64,000 bases of DNA. Source: Circinella minor. Taxonomy: Eukaryota > Mucoromycota > Mucoromycetes > Mucorales > Lichtheimiaceae. Both the position numbers and the translations under genes were made by a program. A model generated the notes under the pieces. That model ran no database searches and was not told the DNA's origin. It saw only the letters and a program-made list of their open reading frames with translations. Each line of letters opens with the position of its first letter. The stretch's first letter is position 1. The DNA lies in NCBI GenBank assembly GCA_016758965.1, contig JAEPRB010000005.1, positions 186,001 to 250,000 of the forward strand, written 5' to 3'. Positions 38,892 through 51,794 of this stretch are shown piece after piece.

Positions 38892-41258
38892 TCATTTTAC
38901 ATATAAATTGGTATACACATATACACATACCAATTGGTGCAACTGCGATATAAAAATTTTCTTCAAGTTGTTTTCTTGTTTTCTTGGGACCTGGGGTGCA
39001 CTTCGACGAAGTGGAGGTAATGCTAGTCCATCTTTAGCTAGAATACCACATACACCGTTGAGACCAATATTATGACTGCCTACACCATCACGGTTCATCG
39101 TCGTCCAATGTTTTGATCTACTAGGGCACAAAGGATTAGAACAGCATTTTGATCCATTTGAAATTCGGATCTTTCCATCACGTTTATATGTTTGACAAGT
39201 AAGTCGTGCAAAGCAATAAGGACAAATAGTCGAAGATAAAAACTCGTCAACTTTTACAACATGATCCCCTTGAGGCTTGTCGAGAGCCTCTACAACTTTT
39301 CTTGAACTCCTTCTCGCATGTCCCTTAATAGGGGAGTTTCTATACAATGTATGAAAGGAAACGTTTTGGGATTGTTTAATTTTTTAAAAAAATTATATTA
39401 AAAAGGAGAATACAAAAAAAAGATAGACTAACCTCGGGACCCAACTGCCTACTACGTGAAAAAATGACATTTTGGAACTGCCAAATGATGTACGAATTTT
39501 TGCTGCTAATCTTTCATGTGCTTTTCTTGTTCGTAATTCTCGTGTCTTTCTATCTCTTTCAAGCTTTTCACTCTTGACGTTCTCTTTCTTTCTCTTTTTA
39601 CGTTCCCTGTAGCGAGCATGTTTACTAGAATGAGTAATTGAATTCATCCAACGAGGTGAATTATTGACAGGCTTAACAAGTTTGGTAATGTTGGAAACAT
39701 TTTTTGAACTTGATGAGGTTTCTTCAACCCCCTCCATTACTACATCATCATCCTCTGTATCCGTGCCAATATCGGTATCTGGGAGTGCATATAATGCAAT
39801 ATGGCGGTTTATGTCGGTATAATATTCTGCTAAAGTTTTTCCAGTGGTTGTAGTCGTCGTAACGATACCTGGATCAGTACCAGTAATACACGTGCCTTTT
39901 GGATCCGATACAAGAATCTTGAACTTTTTCAAATCGTCAGTACTCTATATATATATGAGTATATTTTTTCCTTGTGAGAATACATATCTGATAAACTACC
40001 CGGATTTATCTTAACATTGTTAATATTTGATAATACTTACCAGTAACTTCTTCAGTCCTGGTATCGTTTGATTCTTATTTTTCTTGTTAAGATAATACAA
40101 ATAAGATCTTTTCTCTCTCAAATTACTATGCGTACTTGACACTTTTAACCATTGGTCGTCCACTTTTTTTCTAGCTTCTTTGAGGGCCTTCGATAAAACA
40201 TTCTTTTCTTCTTCGACATTAGATAACCATTGTTTATCTTGGTTTTCGATAGGTTTCTTTTTTTCTCGTGACATTTTTTTCATCAATGTGTTGTATGGAG
40301 ATGATTTCACCATGCGTTCCGATACATGAGAGGCTAGTATTTTGTTTTCTTTGGTATATAGTGATGCAAGACGACTTACTTCTTGGCTCAATTTTTTTAT
40401 CTCTTTCTGTAATTCTTCTTTATCTCCATCGTCGTCGTCGTCGTCGTTTCTCACCTTTGATGATGATGATGACGATGATTTTTGTTTTTTTGTAATGCGA
40501 TAGCCTATCCAACAAATCTGAAGCTTGTTTACGTACTCTAGAATTAAATGAAAACGAAGACGATGCTCTTCCAAAATACGTTGAATACTTGTCATATTAA
40601 AAAAAATTGATAATACAGCTAGACGATGTCTACCTGCATGCATTCTGTCACGAACAACAGCTTCATCTGAACCATACATTTCATGAGATTCACGAAATAT
40701 TTCATATATACCTCTTGCTGATAAATGTAATGATTGCTTTTCTTGTAATACAGGATACATTGCTATTGTTTGTTTATCCAACTTCACTGCTTCGAGAATT
40801 TTATTTGAGAGAAAAACGAATGGTGCCAAATTAAAAACTGTTACATTAGGATCGCTATTATCATTTTTTTTCTTAGGAACGAATGGTCGGATAAATTTGA
40901 TGATACATGACGCAACTTCGCAAGCTTGTTCTGGTATTTTTGTTGAAGAATAAATAGCTTTTCGAACATCGTTAGCTGTAACACGCTGGTCAATCTTGGA
41001 AGACATACTCATCATTGTAATAACAGCCTCTAAACATCTGATGGTAGTGCGCGAAACGTCTGTTGTTGGTGTTGACGGAATAGATAATGAACTAGTGGCC
41101 ACGGTGCTAGAGGATGTTTCTATAGATAATGATTCTTGTTCTGCGCTACTACTTTTCTGACTCTCCTTATAAACAAGTTCTTCTTCAAACGTATGATCAC
41201 CATCGTCATCATTATTATTATCGTCATCATCGAGATTTTGTACTTCAGCCTCAAACAT
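38892..41258 (-). CDS. Fanzor/TnpB-like RNA-guided nuclease, copy A
   Basis: Three exons: 40041-41258, 39433-39944 and 38892-39339, with clean GT..AG introns of 96 and 93 nt; 725 aa, no internal stop. The C-terminal third is the RuvC/zinc-finger core of the IS605-OrfB/TnpB/Fanzor family: RuvC-I GTDPGIV (Asp430), RuvC-II VDEFLSSTICPYC (Glu609), a zinc ribbon with Cys616, Cys619, Cys643 and Cys648, and RuvC-III NRDGVGSHNI (Asp661). The basic arginine helix before exon 3 (RYRERKKRKKENVKSEKLER) fits the bridging/nucleic-acid-binding part. The first 400 residues are helical with acidic and Ser repeats and align with copy B (ACEVAS..IIKFIRP; SLHLSARGIYEIF). Fanzors are transposon-borne eukaryotic nucleases guided by an RNA encoded near the gene's 3' end; activity here is inferred. 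The ATG lies exactly at a position homologous to a splice acceptor in copy B, so upstream exons may be missing. Confidence 0.85.
38906..38935. ncRNA. Stem-loop at the 3' end of Fanzor copy A (candidate guide-RNA region)
   Basis: AATTGGTAT and ATACCAATT form a 9-bp perfect stem with a 12-nt loop, overlapping the last codons and lying 14 nt from the stop of the Fanzor gene. In TnpB/Fanzor loci the guide RNA overlaps or follows the 3' end of the nuclease gene and the transposon end. This is only a positional suggestion; no promoter, boundary or second copy supports it. Confidence 0.2.
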
Positions 41259-43963: not shown

Positions 43964-44423
43964 ATGATTAACCAAGCTCTTATCGTTGCTATTATTATTG
44001 TCATTATGCTTGCAGTAATCGCCCTTTGCTTTCATGCCTATGCTTATAAGGACATGAGACGAAAAAGTAAAGTTTTCTTTCAATACAGCTGATCAATCAA
44101 TGACCATATATATATTATATCCTAGAACATACCCAACCTAACAATGATTATTTATTATTATTATAGAGAAAATAAGACAACAACAAGAACGTCGCCAACG
44201 TCAACAGATAGAACGATGGCAAGATATTGTAAACTCACAAGTCATTTATCGGTACGATACAGATACAGCCGTGATGAATCGACCAAGAACAGAAGATGAA
44301 GAAAATGCTCTTCCTCCATGTTATACTGAAAACAGTACCGATGATCCGGAACAATCAACAAGCGTATTATCACCACCACCACCAACATATAAAAACCACC
44401 ATCTTGATACACGAATTCGATAA
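43964..44423 (+). CDS. PPxY small membrane protein 1 (RCR-like)
   Basis: Two exons (43964-44066 and 44167-44423), 119 aa. Residues about 5-27 form one hydrophobic span (LIVAIIIVIMLAVIALCF), directly followed by a basic Gln/Arg-rich segment (MRRKKKIRQQQERRQRQQ). The intron is phase 1 and falls at the end of the first basic block. The C-terminal half has two PPxY motifs: PPCY at 84-87 and PPTY at 106-109 in SPPPPTYK. PPxY binds WW domains of Nedd4/Rsp5-type ubiquitin ligases. A single N-terminal span plus PPxY tail is the layout of fungal RCR (resistance to Congo red) proteins, which route membrane cargo for ubiquitination. First of five co-oriented genes with the same layout. Family assignment is inferred from architecture, not from alignment. 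Confidence 0.72.
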
Positions 44424-45226
44424 TTTTGTTTCCTTTATATACATTATAACTTATTTTATATTTATTACAACGCCTTTTCCATATTTTTTGTTTACAAAAA
44501 AAAAAAAAATCAAAAAAAATCCTGGAAAAATAATTTCTCCCCGCCTTATACTTGTTCTATATATATATTTATTCTTCTGTGTTTTTCATACTTATACATA
44601 TATAACAACAGCATGTGACTTATATTTTACTCACACATTCTTATATTTTAATAATATATTCTGTATAGCCTATCTATAAATTTTATTTTGCTAGTACTAT
44701 GTAAATAATAATTATAATAATAATCATAATTTTTAATACATAATTTATTCATACTGTTAGTTATATTAATGATCACAATAGTAGCAAGTGCTCCGAATTT
44801 GCTTCCGTTTTATTTTAACACTTTTGTGTTACTTTGAAACGAACAAGGAAAATCAAATCAAGAAATTCAATTTGGTTTTTAAATATATCTATGTATGTAT
44901 TACTTGTCTAATGCCTGTTTCCTTTTTATTTAATTAACTTCTTTTATATTTTAACTTATCATACCACAAAAAAAAATAGAAAAATGCATTACTATTGTTA
45001 TTATATTGACATAAGTATCAGTAATAAAGAGAAATTATACCATAAACTACCTTTTAGTATCGTGTTACAACGAAACCATTGATCCAAACTTGAATCCGTG
45101 TCACACAAAAAGAAAACTTGGTATTATCTCTTTTTTTTCTTTTCTCTTTTTATTTCTTTTTCTTTCTTTCTTTTTTCGTTCTAATATTATACACATACAA
45201 AAACAATTGTAATTATAAAAATAAAC
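44424..45226. other. Intergenic stretch, cluster genes 1-2
   Basis: About 0.8 kb, AT-rich, ending in a long pyrimidine tract (45127-45180) just before the next ATG. No gene is seen. Confidence 0.45.
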
Positions 45227-45702
45227 ATGCTCAATGATAATAATGATATTGTAATTACCATTATTGCTCTTGTTATTGGATTAACACTGGTAGCTGTATG
45301 TCTTGTATGTTTTCATGTTAAAAAAGTACGAGAAGAGAACAATAATTCACTAGATTCGTGTGAGGGCTCTGGTAAAAATCCATTTTTATTTTTCTATTCG
45401 CTACCTAAACAAAGGTTTTGATGTTGTAAACGATTTTTTTTTTATTGAAAAGAAAAAAAATTGCATAATTCACAATGATAGCTAACGAACGAAATCGTCG
45501 ACCAGCACACTATCGAAGACTATTACGACAGCGTATGGAGCGAGAATTACCAATGCAACAAAACCTTAACTCGCAAATTGATCCACCATCTTATCATGTT
45601 GCTATTGATATAATTGATCCTCGGCCTCCTCCTCCGACTTACGGTCAGCATCGAAGAGATACACGAATTGCTTCTTTAACTCAACAGCAGCAGCAACAGT
45701 AA
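45227..45702 (+). CDS. PPxY small membrane protein 2 (RCR-like)
   Basis: Two exons (45227-45371 and 45482-45702), 121 aa. The hydrophobic span is at about 8-30 (IVITIIALVIGLTLVAVCLV) followed by HVKKVREE. The phase-1 intron comes after SCEGS, and exon 2 opens with a strongly basic stretch (NERNRRPAHYRRLLRQRMER). The two motifs are PPSY at 83-86 and PPTY at 99-102 (RPPPPTYG). The protein ends in a poly-Gln run encoded by CAG/CAA repeats. Layout, orientation and intron phase match cluster gene 1, but almost no sequence outside the motifs is shared, so divergence is old or fast. An in-frame alternative start inside exon 2 (45475) would lose the membrane anchor and is less likely. Confidence 0.72.
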
Positions 45703-47819
45703 CAGCAACAATAGTAATTATCATCTACGTATCATAGTAATAGCATTATAATAAGCATTCCCCTGTAATCATAATATAGTAGTAACAATAGTAAGAATAT
45801 TAGTAGCATCCCAACAACAATGCAGCAATAATATTTATCATGTATATATATATATATATATTTGTATTTATTTTGTCGGTGACGACGAGTACGTAACAGT
45901 ATTTCATCAATTACATATTACCAAATTTTCTTTATGAAATATTATATAATGTAAATCATCAATTTCATCGAAAACAGAGAAGCAACATGATACCATTGCC
46001 AAACTTCAATTGGATCAGAACAAAAAAATAAAAAATAAAAATTAAACTCAACGAGCTTTCCATTTTTGGATACGTTTTTGCAGACAGCGTTTTTTTTTTT
46101 TTTTTTTTTTGATTACATGAGAAGGGAAGATATTCCCCAGCAGTTACCAATTTTTATTAATTCGTTAATAACATCCAAAATGCTTAATACATCAATATTG
46201 ATATTCACATTCTGATTGCAATTTTCTTATATCTCAGATTTTGAAAATATGGTATTAGATCCAACCTGTTACTATGGGAATTATTGAAAACGGAGTGCTT
46301 AATCTTGAAAGCACATACATGCAAAAGGATTATGTCATAGCAACAACAACTTTACGAGATGGACAGGATAAATAGCAAAAGTGTTGAATTATTAGTAATA
46401 GCATTATCGCTAAAAAGATGAAATAAATTATTACACTTTGACGTTTAGATTATTATTCGGCAACAAATAGAAACAAATTAGGCTAGTTCGAATACATACT
46501 CTTCGTAAAATAGATCGACTTAGTCACTTTGACGAACGATTCGATAAAGACGACCAGACCCAGAAGATGTATGACATCTCCCATCATCTCATCACTCACA
46601 AACAACTGGTACTACGTAGAAAACGTTTTTGCTAAATTTACGTACGTACCCCATCTTCTCTTTCTGTTTATTTACTCTTTTTTTTTTTTATAAATCCTTC
46701 TCTTTCTCTACCACACTAGCTTAGCTTCCCCCTTACTAGAGTTTTTAAAATAATGGCACATTCTTTTTATTATATGCATTTTCAGAAATACGTATTTCGT
46801 ATATAGTCTCTTTTAATAACAACTTTTATTAATTGTTTTATACAAGTTTTGAGCTGTTATATGATACTATCTGCATAACGAGTGATCTACGTAATACGTA
46901 AAGGCACCTGGGAAAAACTATCTATATATTAAATAAGCTCCTACTAGTAATTTATGTAAGTGATTGTTCAGATATATAAGCATTATGTTCTCAGCCAGTT
47001 GCTATATGTATTAATAAGGAACAATATGTCAAATCTAAACTATTTTCAATCTGAGAACAGCTTTCCTACTTTTAGTAAAAAGCGTCTTGCTTTAATCTGG
47101 TCTACTTCCGAGAAATATTTGACTAGAAAAGAAAAACAAGAACGCTGTTTGATGATTCTTTTTCGAGACGAATATTAGCTCTTGAAATGATGTCAATAAT
47201 ATCATCACCAAATGTAAATAAACATCACTGATGATTTATTTATTTATTTTTGCTTCAATCTATTCTTGTTCGACATGCTAAAGAATATTGATAAATACAT
47301 ACACATTTTCAATGCTTTATATTATTTCACCATTTGTTGTTATTATAATGTTTTTTTTTGTAATAATCGATGATCATAGTAATGGTAATACAATAAAATT
47401 ATTTTTCGTGTGTAACGCTATGTAACAAGATAATAAATACGTGTTATGGGTTTATATGTATATATATATATATATAGCACGAGTAATTACTTATTATAAC
47501 GTCTGCATCAACTACATAAATGACACCATTACATTTTAGTAAATTAAAAAAGAAGAAATGAAAGTAACCATATTAAATAAGCTACTCAGCGAAAAAGCAA
47601 AACAAAATAGAATTGGGAAATAGTTGACATTTTTGTTAAAAAAACAATTTAGGTTTGGTCTCAGCAGTTATGTTGTTTAACTATAGTAAGCCACCTGTTA
47701 ATGTAATACAAACCGCTGCATTGTTCAAACAAAACATATAAAGTAAAATAGCTTTATTGATTTGGTTTTTTTTTTCTCTCTATCTCTTTATTTACTACTG
47801 TATTAACGATTTGATCATA
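45703..47819. other. Gene-free gap inside the PPxY cluster
   Basis: About 2.1 kb, the largest gap in the cluster. I looked for a sixth copy and found no hydrophobic exon followed by PPxY. A CAA/GTA-rich degenerate repeat lies just after the cluster gene 2 stop (45685-45830), an ATATAT run at 45843-45860, and T23 at 46091-46111. A 72-codon frame at 46960-47178 has no support. Confidence 0.45.
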
Positions 47820-48240
47820 ATGGTTAGCGGAGTTGCCACTTATTGTATGATTGTAGGTCTTTGTATTGCAGTGATCATACTAGGATTTATTATTATGCGT
47901 ATTATAAAACACAAACAAGCAAAGAAAGAAACGAATCAAGAACACCCATTAGAAGAAAATAATTTTGGAAGACGAGGTATATATCGTTTTTATATTTGTA
48001 AAGACAAAGAAGCTCCAAGTGAAAGTGTTTTTTTCAGGAATTCTTCCAGCTAATGATAAGAATATCTTTGATTTTATGAAAAAAAAAATACCTTTATCTT
48101 TTTATTTATTTATTTTTCAAGGCGATGACCCGCCGATTCAACAACAACATACATCTGTTCAAGTAGATAGACCTCCTGCCTATGAGGCTGATACTAAAGG
48201 TCTTTCACCTCCGCCTAAATATATCACCAAGAACTCATGA
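47820..48240 (+). CDS. PPxY small membrane protein 3 (RCR-like)
   Basis: Two exons (47820-47976 and 48122-48240), 91 aa, the shortest of the five. The span is at about 6-28 (ATYCMIVGLCIAVIILGFII), followed by the basic block MRIIKHKQAKK. The phase-1 intron follows NNFGRR; exon 2 begins GDDPPIQQQHTS. The motifs are PPAY at 70-73 (DRPPAYEAD) and PPKY at 83-86 (SPPPKYITKNS), only five residues from the C-terminus. The PPxYExD form is often seen in WW ligands. An upstream in-frame ATG at 47757 would add hydrophobic residues; ATG 47820 is chosen because it gives the same short N-terminus as the siblings. Confidence 0.72.
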
Positions 48241-49681
48241 AATAAGAATTCGTATACCAACAACACAGATTGATTATCGATTATTAATCGTTCACCATGG
48301 TTTTCATAGTTTATTTTTTTTCCATGGGAAAAATGATGAACAACTATATGCATATAATTCGCTATTATGACTCATTTTTTTTAAAATATTACTGTATTAC
48401 TATATTATATATTATTACTTGCTTTCCGAATGAAAAAAAAAATAGTAAAACAATTTCTTTTCTCTATCGACAATATTTTATCATTATTAATATTATTATT
48501 TTGGGCTGTATATATAAAATAGCAAAAGAAAAACATATGGGGTCGATTTTTTTAGATGAATAATTTATACAGAAAATATAATTAGCTGTCCCAGACCATT
48601 TGATGGTCTGGTGAACTAAATACTGTATCATCTTATTGGCACTACCAAAGAGATGTTAGCTTAATTTGGTAATTTTTCCTTCTTTAGGATTTTTTTTTTT
48701 TTTTTTTGCTACATAAAATCCAAAAATAACATAGAACCCTTTCCTTCTTTTTCTTTACTTATCTTTCCATTTTTCAATAGCTATGATCTGTGTGTGTGTG
48801 TTTGATTCTTAAAATAATTAGAAAAAAAAATAATATAAAAATAACTTCTTTATTTTTTCTTCACTGTTTCACTTGTCTCCCTTTTATAAGCAATTTGTTA
48901 TTGGCGATGTAACTCTTCTTTATCCATACGTAAAATCCTATTTTTTTTTTGGGCAAATAAATCTCTTTCAATAAAATAAACGAATAAAAGGTCAACGTCC
49001 AACATTTTACATACTAAATGCGGAAACTATGACAAAAGTTTATTTTTGATCCGCTAAACGCAAATATGTGCATAGCAACGAGAGACAATATTTTAATTAC
49101 TTGTAACAAGAGTGACATGAATTATCGCCAATTCTTATTTTGAGAGCATTTGCACGTTCCTGAAAATTAAAAATGTACAGTGAACGATATTATCTGTTTG
49201 TTTCATATATACTTTCCAAATAAAAGATGACGTCAGTTTTATAAATTTTATATGATTAAAAGCTTGTCAAAAATGTAATTCAACTCGTTTTCTTTCAAGT
49301 AATTTTTTTGTTCGTCTTGAATAATTAATGTGAAATATATAATACCACATACATATTCATTATTAATACAAAGATACCTGTTTTTTTTTTATTTCAATTG
49401 GATAAAATATTGTAGTATAGGACTTGTCATTATGATATCATATTTTATATAAAACAAAAACCTTAAATGTGTAAATGATTGATCAGTATAAAGAAGTGAA
49501 ATAGAAGCACTGGGGATCATGTAGAAGAATTATGTAGAAACAAAACAAAAGTCCGCATTTCAAGGTAGTACAAAGAAAGGCACTGATTAACGAACGCAGA
49601 ATATATAAAAGTAGTCCATTTTTTGTGGTTTCAAGAAATTTATTATAATTTTTATTTTTTTTTATTTTTTTTTATTTTTCA
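48241..49681. other. Intergenic stretch, cluster genes 3-4
   Basis: About 1.4 kb, AT-rich. It contains a perfect hairpin CCAGACCAT-TTG-ATGGTCTGG at 48591-48611 and several T runs. No gene is seen. The tract TTTATTTTTTTTTATTTT before 49681 is a typical pyrimidine-rich leader. Confidence 0.45.
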
Positions 49682-50152
49682 ATGAATTTGCGTATTATAA
49701 TTCTATTTATTGTTGTTGGTCTTTTATTGATATTGGGTACAATAATTATACGACATATAAAAATGAAGGAATTAAAAGAGAAAGAACACAAATCTTTAAG
49801 TAAATATAAATTATTTTTTATTATTATTGATTTAAACTCAAAAAGAGATGCTACGCAATTGACTAACCAATTTTATATTCATTGAATAGTGTGTACTTTT
49901 ATAGTAAGTGATGATCATATAACACGAAGAAGAAGAAGAAGAAATAATAATCATAATCTTCGAAGAAATTCTCATATAACTATTCAAATGGATCCACCGC
50001 CACCTCCTTATGGAAGTGATCTAATTGGACCTGCTCCACCTGTTTATTATCAAGATCAATCTAGAATTAATAACAATTTATCATCAGGAACCACTTTAAT
50101 AACAACCGGATCAACTACTACCGCAGCAGGGACAGTAACAACAACATATTAA
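49682..50152 (+). CDS. PPxY small membrane protein 4 (RCR-like)
   Basis: Two exons (49682-49799 and 49905-50152), 121 aa. The span starts almost at the N-terminus (about 4-23, RIIILFIVVGLLLILGTIII) and is followed by RHIKMKELKEKEHK. The phase-1 intron is in the same place relative to the basic block as in the siblings. Exon 2 has a run of six Arg (TRRRRRRNNN) then PPPY at 72-75 (MDPPPPPYGSD) and PPVY at 84-87 (APPVYYQD). Unlike the siblings it has a further 34-residue Ser/Thr/Gly-rich tail. The hexa-Arg run is encoded by a pure AGA/CGA-like AGA repeat. Confidence 0.72.
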
Positions 50153-50609
50153 AAATCGACATTATACCATTTATATCTTTTTCTGTTCTCCTCCTCCTCC
50201 TCTCTCTTTTTTTTTTCTTTTTGAAATATATTGTAATTATCTTAAAATACATTTATTATGTATATATATACCCTCTTCTTTAATTGTATTAAATAAAAAT
50301 AACAAAATAATTTGTAAATATATATATAAGATCTACTTTGTATATTAATTTCTTTATATATGGAACGCATAAAATGATATCATCATTTTTCTTCTTTGAG
50401 ATGCTTAGCACAGAACAAAAAGGTTTATGCAACAGCAGTAACCAATAATAATAATAATAATAATAATAATTACTTTTCTTTTTTTTAAGGTAGTACAAAA
50501 AAACTAATAAGAAATGAATGTTCGAAAACCTTCTTTCTTTTCATATATGAATATGAATATATATATATATATATATACTCTTGGTTATTGTTTTATAATA
50601 TAATTAATA
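50153..50609. other. Intergenic stretch, cluster genes 4-5
   Basis: About 0.46 kb with an (AAT)n repeat at about 50445-50470 and an ATATAT run at about 50559-50576. It must hold the promoter of cluster gene 5. No gene is seen. Confidence 0.45.
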
Positions 50610-50993
50610 ATGGAACTTTATCATATATTTTTAATTCTTATTGGTATTGTTATTATTTTATTATTTATAAATGTTATAAGATATAAAATATTACAAAAAA
50701 GAAAAATTGCTAAAAGAATTAAAATACAAGAAAATAGAAGAAGATATTATGGTAAAGATGATACTAAATGATAGTTTTTATTATTATTATTATTATTATT
50801 ATTTATAGTTATTAAAAAATATTTATATATTATAGAATATATAGAAAATCAAAACAGACAAGAGAATTGTAATAATATATCGAGTACGATGATTCAAATT
50901 GATTTGCCTCCACCTACATATCAACTAACAGATCCTCCACCACCTGTATATCAATCTCCATCAAAATCCTCATTACCAAGTATATCAAGATGA
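50610..50993 (+). CDS. PPxY small membrane protein 5 (RCR-like)
   Basis: Two exons (50610-50751 and 50836-50993), 99 aa. Neither exon is long enough to stand out as an open frame; the gene was found by matching the pattern of its siblings. The span is at about 3-22 (LYHIFLILIGIVIILLFINV), followed by a basic block (RYKILQKRKIAKRIKIQENRRR). The phase-1 intron joins YY to EYIENQNRQ. The motifs are PPTY at 73-76 (LPPPTYQ) and PPVY at 83-86 (PPPPVYQ), ten residues apart. The introns and third positions are extremely AT-rich, with Ile coded mostly by ATT/ATA. Last gene of the co-oriented cluster; next downstream is bS21m on the other strand. Confidence 0.68.
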
Positions 50994-51407: not shown

Positions 51408-51794
51408 TTACCGTTGTTTCATTTGCATAATAAGAGCAACCTTCTTTCCAACCATAGCACCAAACAATTTACGATTACGTTCAATATTTTGTCTTCTTCT
51501 TGCAACAGTAGGTTTTTCATAATAACGATTGGCTCGTACTTCACGACGAACCTTGTTTTGTGCCAAAATGGAGTTCAAACGACGATAAGCAACATTGGGG
51601 TTAGCGACATTAGCAATCGATCGACCAGAATAAGGTTCCAAAGAAGTGGCTAATTCATTTTTTACATCCCATTCAGCAGCTGGAAGAGCCATAGATGGTG
51701 TATTTTTTTCTGCTTGTAAAAATGTTGAAGTAGTGAATGAACGTGCTGTTGTTAAACTACGAGTCCAGCCTAATAATGTTGATCGTAATGCCAT
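51408..51794 (-). CDS. Mitochondrial ribosomal protein bS21m
   Basis: Intronless, 128 aa. The N-terminus (MALRSTLLGWTRSLTTARSF) is basic and Ser/Thr-rich, a good mitochondrial presequence. The C-terminal 70 residues match the bS21 family: NVAYRRLNSILAQNKVRREV, then RANRYYEKPTVARRRQNIER, then KLFGAMVGKKVALIMQMKQR. The RYYEKP..RRR signature is characteristic of the eukaryotic mitochondrial form. It is part of the small subunit of the mitochondrial ribosome. The start ATG at 51794 is the first ATG in frame and is followed by the expected presequence. Confidence 0.9.
   Translation of the reverse strand: MALRSTLLGWTRSLTTARSFTTSTFLQAEKNTPSMALPAAEWDVKNELATSLEPYSGRSIANVANPNVAYRRLNSILAQNKVRREVRANRYYEKPTVARRRQNIERNRKLFGAMVGKKVALIMQMKQR

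What the first reader, a model, noticed from the sequence alone, without database searches (positions are those of the whole stretch)
43964..50993. Tandem cluster of five tiny membrane proteins, each with two PPxY motifs
Five co-oriented genes (91-121 aa) share one plan: short N-terminus, single membrane span, basic block, phase-1 intron, then exactly two PPxY motifs (PPCY/PPTY, PPSY/PPTY, PPAY/PPKY, PPPY/PPVY, PPTY/PPVY). PPxY is the classical ligand of WW domains in Nedd4/Rsp5 ubiquitin ligases, and the layout resembles fungal RCR proteins. A local array of this many highly diverged minimal copies would amount to a switchable set of membrane ubiquitin-ligase adaptors. The shared plan is visible in the sequence; the adaptor role is inference.
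Basis: partly seen in the sequence, partly recalled or inferred. Interest (0 to 1): 0.85.

Follow-up and report, generated by a model that had tools for sequence, protein, structure and literature searches.

The report
Fungal family of tiny PPxY membrane proteins
A mould carries a row of five very small membrane proteins, plus three relatives elsewhere in its genome, each with a short tail bearing the proline-tyrosine tag that usually recruits ubiquitin-adding enzymes; the tags have been preserved during evolution, so these are probably tiny adaptors that help decide which membrane proteins are removed.

Summary
Five co-oriented two-exon genes (119, 121, 91, 121, 99 aa) each encode one membrane span, a phase-1 intron and exactly two PPxY motifs. 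Five such doublets occur in the window against a mean of 0.005 in simulated sequence. The genome is Circinella minor (Mucorales); two genes match its deposited proteins. Outside the window I found three more members, all with the phase-1 intron, bearing 3, 2 and 1 PPxY. Orthologues of single members exist in C. umbellata, Phascolomyces, Fennellomyces and unnamed contigs, so the copies are old. P, P and Y are kept in 16 of 17 aligned motifs, other X-X-x-X patterns in 141 of 436.

No member passes Pfam's cut-off for RCR, WBP-1 or Comm. One passes melan-A's (29.1 against 27 bits), but its orthologue does not. The family works like RCR/Comm/CYYR-type membrane PY adaptors but is not shown to be any of them.

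Against the Rsp5 reading, no Nedd4/Rsp5-type HECT or WW set was recognised in the held assembly, probably a gap, since related fungi have RSP5 (PMC5913265). "Switchable" has no support.

The parts
43964..44423 (+). g1, 119 aa; exon 1 43964-44066 (span residues 5-23), intron 44067-44166 phase 1, exon 2 44167-44423
   Evidence: matches deposited INT45_004748 from residue 15 (P0001)
44313..44390 (+). g1 PPxY pair: PPCY 44313-44324, PPTY 44379-44390
   Evidence: PPAY/PPSY in Fennellomyces P0006, PPSY/PPTY in P0007 and P0009
45227..45702 (+). g2, 121 aa; exon 1 45227-45371, intron 45372-45481 phase 1, exon 2 45482-45702
   Evidence: Phascolomyces orthologue P0003 has the same spliced plan
45583..45642 (+). 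g2 PPxY pair: PPSY 45583-45594, PPTY 45631-45642
   Evidence: both kept in P0003
47820..48240 (+). g3, 91 aa; exon 1 47820-47976, intron 47977-48121 phase 1, exon 2 48122-48240
   Evidence: identical to deposited INT45_004749 (P0002)
48172..48222 (+). g3 PPxY pair: PPAY 48172-48183, PPKY 48211-48222
   Evidence: the first kept and the second missing in the annotated C. umbellata product P0005
49682..50152 (+). g4, 121 aa; exon 1 49682-49799, intron 49800-49904 phase 1, exon 2 49905-50152
   Evidence: closest paralogue g7 on contig C89, 51% over the matched part of exon 2
50000..50047 (+). g4 PPxY pair: PPPY 50000-50011, PPVY 50036-50047
   Evidence: PPPY/PPIY in P0010, which matches g7 (199) slightly better than g4 (191)
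50610..50993 (+). g5, 99 aa; exon 1 50610-50751, intron 50752-50835 phase 1, exon 2 50836-50993
   Evidence: exon-1 homologues P0008 and P0012; no exon-2 homologue from another species was found
50910..50951 (+). g5 PPxY pair: PPTY 50910-50921, PPVY 50940-50951
   Evidence: conservation could not be tested

Best explanation
The five genes are the larger part of a gene family of at least eight minimal single-pass membrane proteins (N-terminus outside or lumenal, tail in the cytosol) whose tails are WW-domain ligands. Most likely each copy sits in a particular endomembrane or surface membrane, uses its span and juxtamembrane part to contact client membrane proteins, and uses its PPxY motifs to bring in a Rsp5/Nedd4-type HECT ligase, so that the client is ubiquitylated and sorted to the vacuole. 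Duplication gave a set of copies with one kind of recruiting tail and diverged client-facing parts. Shown: gene models that agree with deposited junctions, common descent, one span, orthologues elsewhere, selective retention of PPxY. Inferred: topology and, from the established PPxY-WW pairing, WW binding. Inferred by analogy with Rcr1/2, Comm and CYYR1: the ligase, the adaptor role, the clients and the outcome.
For: Gene plan and junctions, with the same junctions in independently annotated P0001 and P0002 and the same spliced plan in P0003 and P0014. PPxY kept in 16 of 17 aligned motifs against 141 of 436 other X-X-x-X patterns (Fisher 3e-7), and 4 of 4 against 19 of 116 for the two pairs between named genera; the x residue is kept in 10 of 16. 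Signature Q-[IVM]-D before the first PPxY in g2-g7, and PPxY..H..D.RI in g1, g2 and g8. One hydrophobic segment per protein in 8 of 8. The g8 tail has no lysine in C. minor, C. umbellata and the partial P0016 (3 of 3), which favours acting on others over being a ubiquitylated cargo for that member. Precedent: Comm, Rcr1/2, PRRG, CYYR and Shisa compared as short membrane PY proteins that control the location of cell-surface proteins (PMC5578492, passages); Rcr1/2 listed as membrane Rsp5 adaptors (PMC9105457, passage).
Against: No Nedd4/Rsp5-type HECT was recognised in the held assembly: the best match to yeast Rsp5's HECT (46%) is a TOM1/HUWE1-type gene, and none of 16 WW matches looked to my eye like an Rsp5 WW set. 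No expression, binding or localisation data. No sequence membership in a known adaptor family. In the fly assay of PMC5578492 the yeast Rcr genes did not act like Comm (abstract), so likeness of plan does not assure likeness of function. Net charge after the span is not clearly positive in g2-g4, so topology rests on weak ground there. g8 has only one PPxY; the annotated C. umbellata g3 orthologue lacks the second.
Confidence: 0.6

Rival explanations
1. They are PY-tagged cargo or self-sorting proteins like yeast Sna3: PPxY brings in the ligase to ubiquitylate the protein itself and send it to the vacuole lumen; no other client is involved.
For: Sna3's PPAY binds Rsp5 and is needed for its own sorting (PMC2171029, start of abstract and passages). 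Tails of g1-g7 have 2-7 lysines.
Against: The tail of g8 and of its two relatives has no lysine (3 of 3; chance 0.016 for the C. minor one at the pooled lysine rate of the other seven tails). Upkeep of many old paralogues only to be degraded is hard to explain (inference).
Confidence: 0.17
2. The tails bind other class-I WW proteins (scaffolds or Wwm1-like proteins), making these membrane anchors for signalling or cytoskeleton rather than ligase adaptors.
For: WW matches exist in the genome on contigs without a listed HECT match; one (C150:36174-36236, L028) has the class-I look YINHQTQTTTWEDPR in a Gln/Pro-rich protein ending in a hydrophobic stretch (class assignment and the likeness to Wwm1 from recall). 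No Rsp5-type WW set recognised.
Against: RSP5 is called the most conserved fungal HECT gene, with 2 copies in Rhizopus oryzae and in Phycomyces (PMC5913265, passages and Table 1), so its apparent absence here is more likely a gap in the held assembly.
Confidence: 0.13
3. They regulate the ligase itself, as CYYR1 does WWP1: PPxY motifs at a membrane drive the ligase's own ubiquitylation and removal.
For: CYYR1, a PPxY protein, does this (PMC11399591, abstract; that it is short and single-pass from PMC5578492, passage). Two or three closely spaced PPxY in 7 of 8 C. minor members would suit multivalent binding.
Against: No data here; g8 has one PPxY. Not exclusive of the adaptor role.
Confidence: 0.08
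4. Chance open frames or decayed genes without function.
For: Strong divergence between copies (18-31% identity to the reference row); three of the five gave no deposited gene model.
Against: PPxY doublets far above chance; orthologues elsewhere with the motif kept; shared intron phase in 8 of 8.
Confidence: 0.02

Closest known systems
Yeast Rcr1/Rcr2 (Pfam RCR, PF12273)
   Same: Fungal membrane proteins with cytosolic PY motifs that recruit Rsp5 (PMC5578492 and PMC9105457, passages)
   Different: No member reaches the Pfam cut-off (best 18.6 of 27.8 bits). Yeast has a pair, here at least eight with five in a row; Rcr1/2 motifs are PPSY and VPEY
Drosophila Commissureless (PF15957) and vertebrate PRRG/CYYR1/WBP1/Shisa-like adaptors
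   Same: Short single-pass proteins with PY tails; Comm and PRRG4 bind Nedd4 and CYYR1 binds WWP1; several change the trafficking of other membrane proteins (passages and abstract)
   Different: Below cut-off (Comm 16.8 of 27 for g1; WBP-1 20.7 of 28.1 for g2). No Cys-rich ectodomain: only 4-10 residues precede the span
Melan-A/MART-1 (PF14991)
   Same: Profile of 117 positions; g6 scores 29.1 bits over its 27-bit cut-off, aligned from span to PPxY. That melan-A has two PPxY and is handled by ITCH is recalled, not from a call
   Different: Only g6 passes; its own C. umbellata orthologue gets 21.3 and g4 15.1. Animal protein. Probably convergence on span plus PPxY
Yeast Sna3
   Same: Membrane protein with a C-terminal cytosolic PPAY that binds Rsp5 (passages)
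   Different: Sna3 has two spans and a PMP3 domain (recalled); here one span and, in 7 of 8, two or three motifs

Membership tests
RCR (PF12273) | Pfam gathering score 27.8 bits | tested here: not met
   0 of 13 proteins scanned (g1-g8, with g8 in its 101-aa form, and P0003, P0005, P0006, P0010, P0014); best g8 18.6, g2 15.6. A six-frame search of the genome with PF12273 found nothing, but its controls rang nowhere
RCR (PF12273) | Single span with cytosolic PY motif(s) | tested here: met
   One hydrophobic segment and 1-3 PPxY in 8 of 8; the cytosolic side is inferred
RCR (PF12273) | Rsp5 binding | not testable with these tools
   No binding data; no Rsp5 recognised in the held assembly
WBP-1 / Shisa-like (PF11669) | Pfam gathering score 28.1 bits | tested here: not met
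   Best 20.7 (g2) of 13 proteins scanned; 6 of 11 members of A3 match at E up to 1 with best E 0.00068
WBP-1 / Shisa-like (PF11669) | Cys-rich N-terminal ectodomain (named for Shisa-like proteins in PMC5578492) | tested here: not met
   4-10 residues before the span, at most one Cys, in 8 of 8
Commissureless (PF15957) | Pfam gathering score 27 bits | tested here: not met
   g1 16.8, g2 14.0, P0006 13.4; not listed for the other 10 of 13
Melan-A (PF14991) | Pfam gathering score 27 bits | tested here: inconclusive
   g6 29.1 (met), orthologue P0014 21.3 and g4 15.1 (not met); the other 10 of 13 scanned not listed
Nedd4/Rsp5 membrane adaptor (functional class) | Conserved PPxY in the tail | tested here: met
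   16 of 17 motifs kept against 141 of 436 other X-X-x-X patterns; g5 could not be included
Nedd4/Rsp5 membrane adaptor (functional class) | Partner ligase in the same genome | tested here: inconclusive
   Not recognised by HECT, WW or yeast Rsp5 HECT queries; the best hit is TOM1/HUWE1-like; completeness of the assembly unknown

The most novel reading that the evidence does not exclude
A lineage-specific set of at least eight minimal membrane PY adaptors (91-122 aa) in one group of Mucorales, in which one kind of recruiting tail has been joined to eight different spans and juxtamembrane parts, so that a single ligase is aimed at many membranes or clients by near-naked transmembrane helices; the partner may even be a non-Nedd4 WW protein.
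Probability: 0.3. Interest if true: 0.65.

Novelty: new variant of a known kind. Interest (0 to 1): 0.45.

Why it matters
How fungal HECT ligases are aimed at membrane proteins is known mostly from yeast arrestins and a few membrane adaptors. A set of paralogues that is little more than a span and a PPxY tail would be a minimal natural test of how much client choice a transmembrane helix can carry. It also suggests that short, intron-split membrane genes are missed by annotation: by the consecutive locus tags, g2 between g1 and g3 seems to have no model, and g4 and g5 gave no deposited match.

Tried and rejected
Recent local amplification: rejected. Homologues pair with single members (best against second-best score, e.g. 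P0003-g2 331 to 86, P0006-g1 315 to 93, P0014-g6 536 to 121; P0010 is undecided, g7 199 to g4 191). A tree of the eight members and 5 of the 13 homologues (P0006 cut to start at residue 35) pairs orthologues first, three of those five pairs starred; its deep branches are weak (73/77), g5 is a long branch, and no claim is made on branching order.

Chance PPxY from proline-rich frames: rejected. Similarity driven only by PPxY: partly true. With PPxY masked most exon-2 pairs lose significance; g2-g4, g4-g7, g4-g6 and g5-g6 keep it, and exon-1 support is clear only for some pairs such as g1-g2, g2-g4, g2-g7, g4-g8 and g5-g6. Common descent therefore rests on linked pairs plus the shared intron, not on every pair.

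Melan-A membership of g6: over the cut-off but not shared by its orthologue; set aside. Other weak matches (E 0.001 to 10) to the eight queries: C42, C77, C24, C85, C349 and C167 were read in translation and I saw no such gene in them; C17, C14, C21, C16 and C155 were only scanned for PPxY (one stray hit); C7, C419, C12 (two), C19, C103, C3 and C443 were not read. The best of them, C42 (E 0.0011 with g7), lies in a 475-aa open frame.

Rsp5: three searches showed none. Structure prediction was not run, since a lone span with a disordered tail would say little. dN/dS between species was not possible because only proteins of relatives were available.

One search had wrong start positions for g2, g3 and g5 and stopped with an error; one search replaces it. 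The 101-aa g8 model used was replaced by a 110-aa one after seeing P0015; both splice in phase 1. Searches returned errors (term too short; two papers not held). One search was a report that did not fit the schema.
Full report
Where it is. The window is G000:C5:186001-250000 of a 46.6-Mb, 619-contig assembly. Two of the genes match deposited Circinella minor proteins, INT45_004748 (g1) and INT45_004749 (g3, identical), on a contig of the same length, 459,674 bp. The taxonomy tool places C. minor in Lichtheimiaceae, Mucorales.

What is there. Five + strand genes, each with a short exon carrying the start and the membrane span, one phase-1 GT-AG intron of 84-145 nt, and a second exon with two PPxY motifs. 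Lengths are 119, 121, 91, 121 and 99 aa. Junctions agree with deposited P0001 (g1) and P0002 (g3), and the Phascolomyces g2 orthologue P0003 has the same spliced plan. The locus tags 004748 and 004749 are consecutive although g2 lies between, so g2 seems unannotated; g4 and g5 gave no deposited match either.

More than chance. The window holds five in-frame PPxY doublets within 40 codons, all in these genes; 200 Markov-simulated windows gave a mean of 0.005 and at most one. Since the genes are paralogues, the count is not five independent events.

More members. Each of the eight proteins was used in turn as a query against the genome; that tool scores only the best candidates and some weak matches were not read, so eight is a lower bound. 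Three further genes have the same plan: g6 at C5:174534-174390/174311-174109 on the minus strand, about 11.5 kb left of the window (115 aa, PPMY/PPAY/PPVY; first seen at E 0.008 with g5); g7 at C89:59708-59588/59476-59229 minus (122 aa, PPPY/PPVY; E 5e-18 with g4); g8 at C2:185201-185102/184972-184740 minus (110 aa, PPTY only; E 0.07 with g1). All three introns are phase 1. The g6 splice gives the same join as the annotated C. umbellata orthologue P0014. The g8 acceptor was moved after seeing P0015; another acceptor in the same phase is possible.

One family. Identity is low: 18-31% to the reference row of each alignment, up to 51% over part of exon 2 for g4-g7. Alignment scores against 300 shuffles link the members through a chain of significant pairs rather than all against all; with PPxY masked only some pairs remain. 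Two signatures reach beyond PPxY: Q-[IVM]-D just before the first motif in g2-g7, and PPxY..H..D.RI in g1, g2 and g8; g2 carries both. With the intron phase shared in 8 of 8, common descent is the simplest reading.

Old, not recent. Thirteen homologues from other sources (P0003, P0005-P0016) each match one member best, though P0010 is undecided between g7 (199) and g4 (191). They come from Phascolomyces (1), Fennellomyces (1), C. umbellata (3) and unnamed ENA contigs (8). Two C. umbellata proteins, orthologues of g3 and g6, report the same longest-contig length (1,350,852), and its g8 orthologue another (793,119), as in C. minor; two ENA pieces of g1 and g2 both report 2,515 bp. That these are the same contigs is inferred from length. 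No homologue outside these sources was found, but the search only reaches relatives that share short exact words.

PPxY is what selection keeps. In nine aligned pairs, 16 of 17 PPxY keep P, P and Y, while 141 of 436 other X-X-x-X patterns in the tails are kept (Fisher 3e-7). For the two pairs between named genera it is 4 of 4 against 19 of 116. The x residue is kept in 10 of 16, near the tail background of 0.69 (350 of 507). The nine pairs are not independent (three for g1, two for g8). The one loss is the second motif in the annotated P0005, which may be a gene-model error. Four of the thirteen homologues (P0008, P0011, P0012, P0013) were left out because they are exon-1 pieces, so g5 is not tested.

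Topology. Each protein has one hydrophobic segment that starts after 4-10 residues, too few for a separate signal peptide; basic residues follow it, though net charge over 20 residues ranges from -1 to +8. An N-out, tail-in orientation is inferred.

Known families. Of 13 proteins scanned, none passes RCR, WBP-1 or Comm; g6 alone passes a cut-off, that of melan-A (29.1 against 27), while its orthologue scores 21.3. WBP-1 is the family matched weakly by most members (6 of 11 at E up to 1), but unrelated span families appear in the same list (e.g. DUF4834 in 5 of 11, Ctr in 4). I read this as a shared plan, not shared ancestry.

Mechanism. PPxY is the ligand of class-I WW domains (established knowledge). 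Short membrane PY proteins act on the trafficking of membrane proteins in yeast (Rcr1/2), flies (Comm) and vertebrates (PRRG4) (PMC5578492 and PMC9105457, passages), and CYYR1 acts on the ligase WWP1 (PMC11399591, abstract). The adaptor role is the best-supported explanation here. A caution from the same source: yeast Rcr genes did not act like Comm in the fly test (PMC5578492, abstract). The lysine-free tail of g8 and its two relatives (3 of 3; chance about 0.016 for one) argues that at least this member is not a ubiquitylated cargo.

The main result against it. A PF00632 search gave 21 HECT matches and yeast Rsp5's HECT gave 12. The best, C32 (46% to Rsp5), scores 443 bits to TOM1, 349 to NEDD4-like and 343 to Rsp5 in the PDB comparison, so it is of the TOM1/HUWE1 type. 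The other eleven match Rsp5 only in pieces at 26-49% identity; they were looked at in translation in part and not compared with the PDB. Sixteen WW matches show no Rsp5-type set by eye. In print, RSP5 is the most conserved fungal HECT gene, with two copies in Rhizopus oryzae and Phycomyces and one in Mortierella alpina (PMC5913265, abstract and passages incl. Table 1). An assembly gap or masked stretch is thus more likely than loss, but this was not shown.

Literature. No paper was found that holds PPxY with Mucorales (0 papers); two hold PPxY with Rhizopus, and by their listing they concern Vps25 and yeast WW domains (passages of the second). A three-of-four search with Rsp5, adaptor, PPxY and Mucor listed 20 of 84 papers, and a five-of-six search with Rsp5, transmembrane, PPxY, tandem, paralogs and fungi 12 of 19; none is on such a family by its title. 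The library holds open-licence papers only.

Verdict. A real, old family of minimal membrane PPxY proteins that looks largely unannotated; a new variant of a known functional kind. The ligase-adaptor role is likely but untested, and 'switchable' is not supported.

Noticed in passing
G000:C89:59228-59160 (L054, minus strand): After the g7 stop codon the same frame continues for 22 codons with a stretch like the C-terminal tail of homologue P0010, so g7 seems to end earlier than its relative; both PPxY lie before the stop.
   Followed up: partly
window 38892-39932 (minus): Two neighbouring frames; the first has CxxC pairs and an NRDGVGSHNIG stretch that recalls a Fanzor/TnpB-type end (from recall only); Pfam gave no match at E 0.001 for either.
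   Followed up: no
window 51408-51794 (minus): Ribosomal protein S21 family (PF01165, 53.6 bits) directly beyond the array; a mitochondrial one by its N-terminus (inference).
   Followed up: yes
whole genome G000: No Nedd4/Rsp5-type HECT ligase recognised in the held assembly although a TOM1/HUWE1-like gene and HECT matches on seven other contigs are there.
   Followed up: partly
L028 (G000:C150:36174-36236, minus): Class-I-looking WW domain in a Gln/Pro-rich protein with a C-terminal hydrophobic stretch; a possible alternative partner.
   Followed up: no
g8 tail, G000:C2:185123-184740 (minus), and P0015, P0016: Cytosolic tail without any lysine in three of three relatives.
   Followed up: partly
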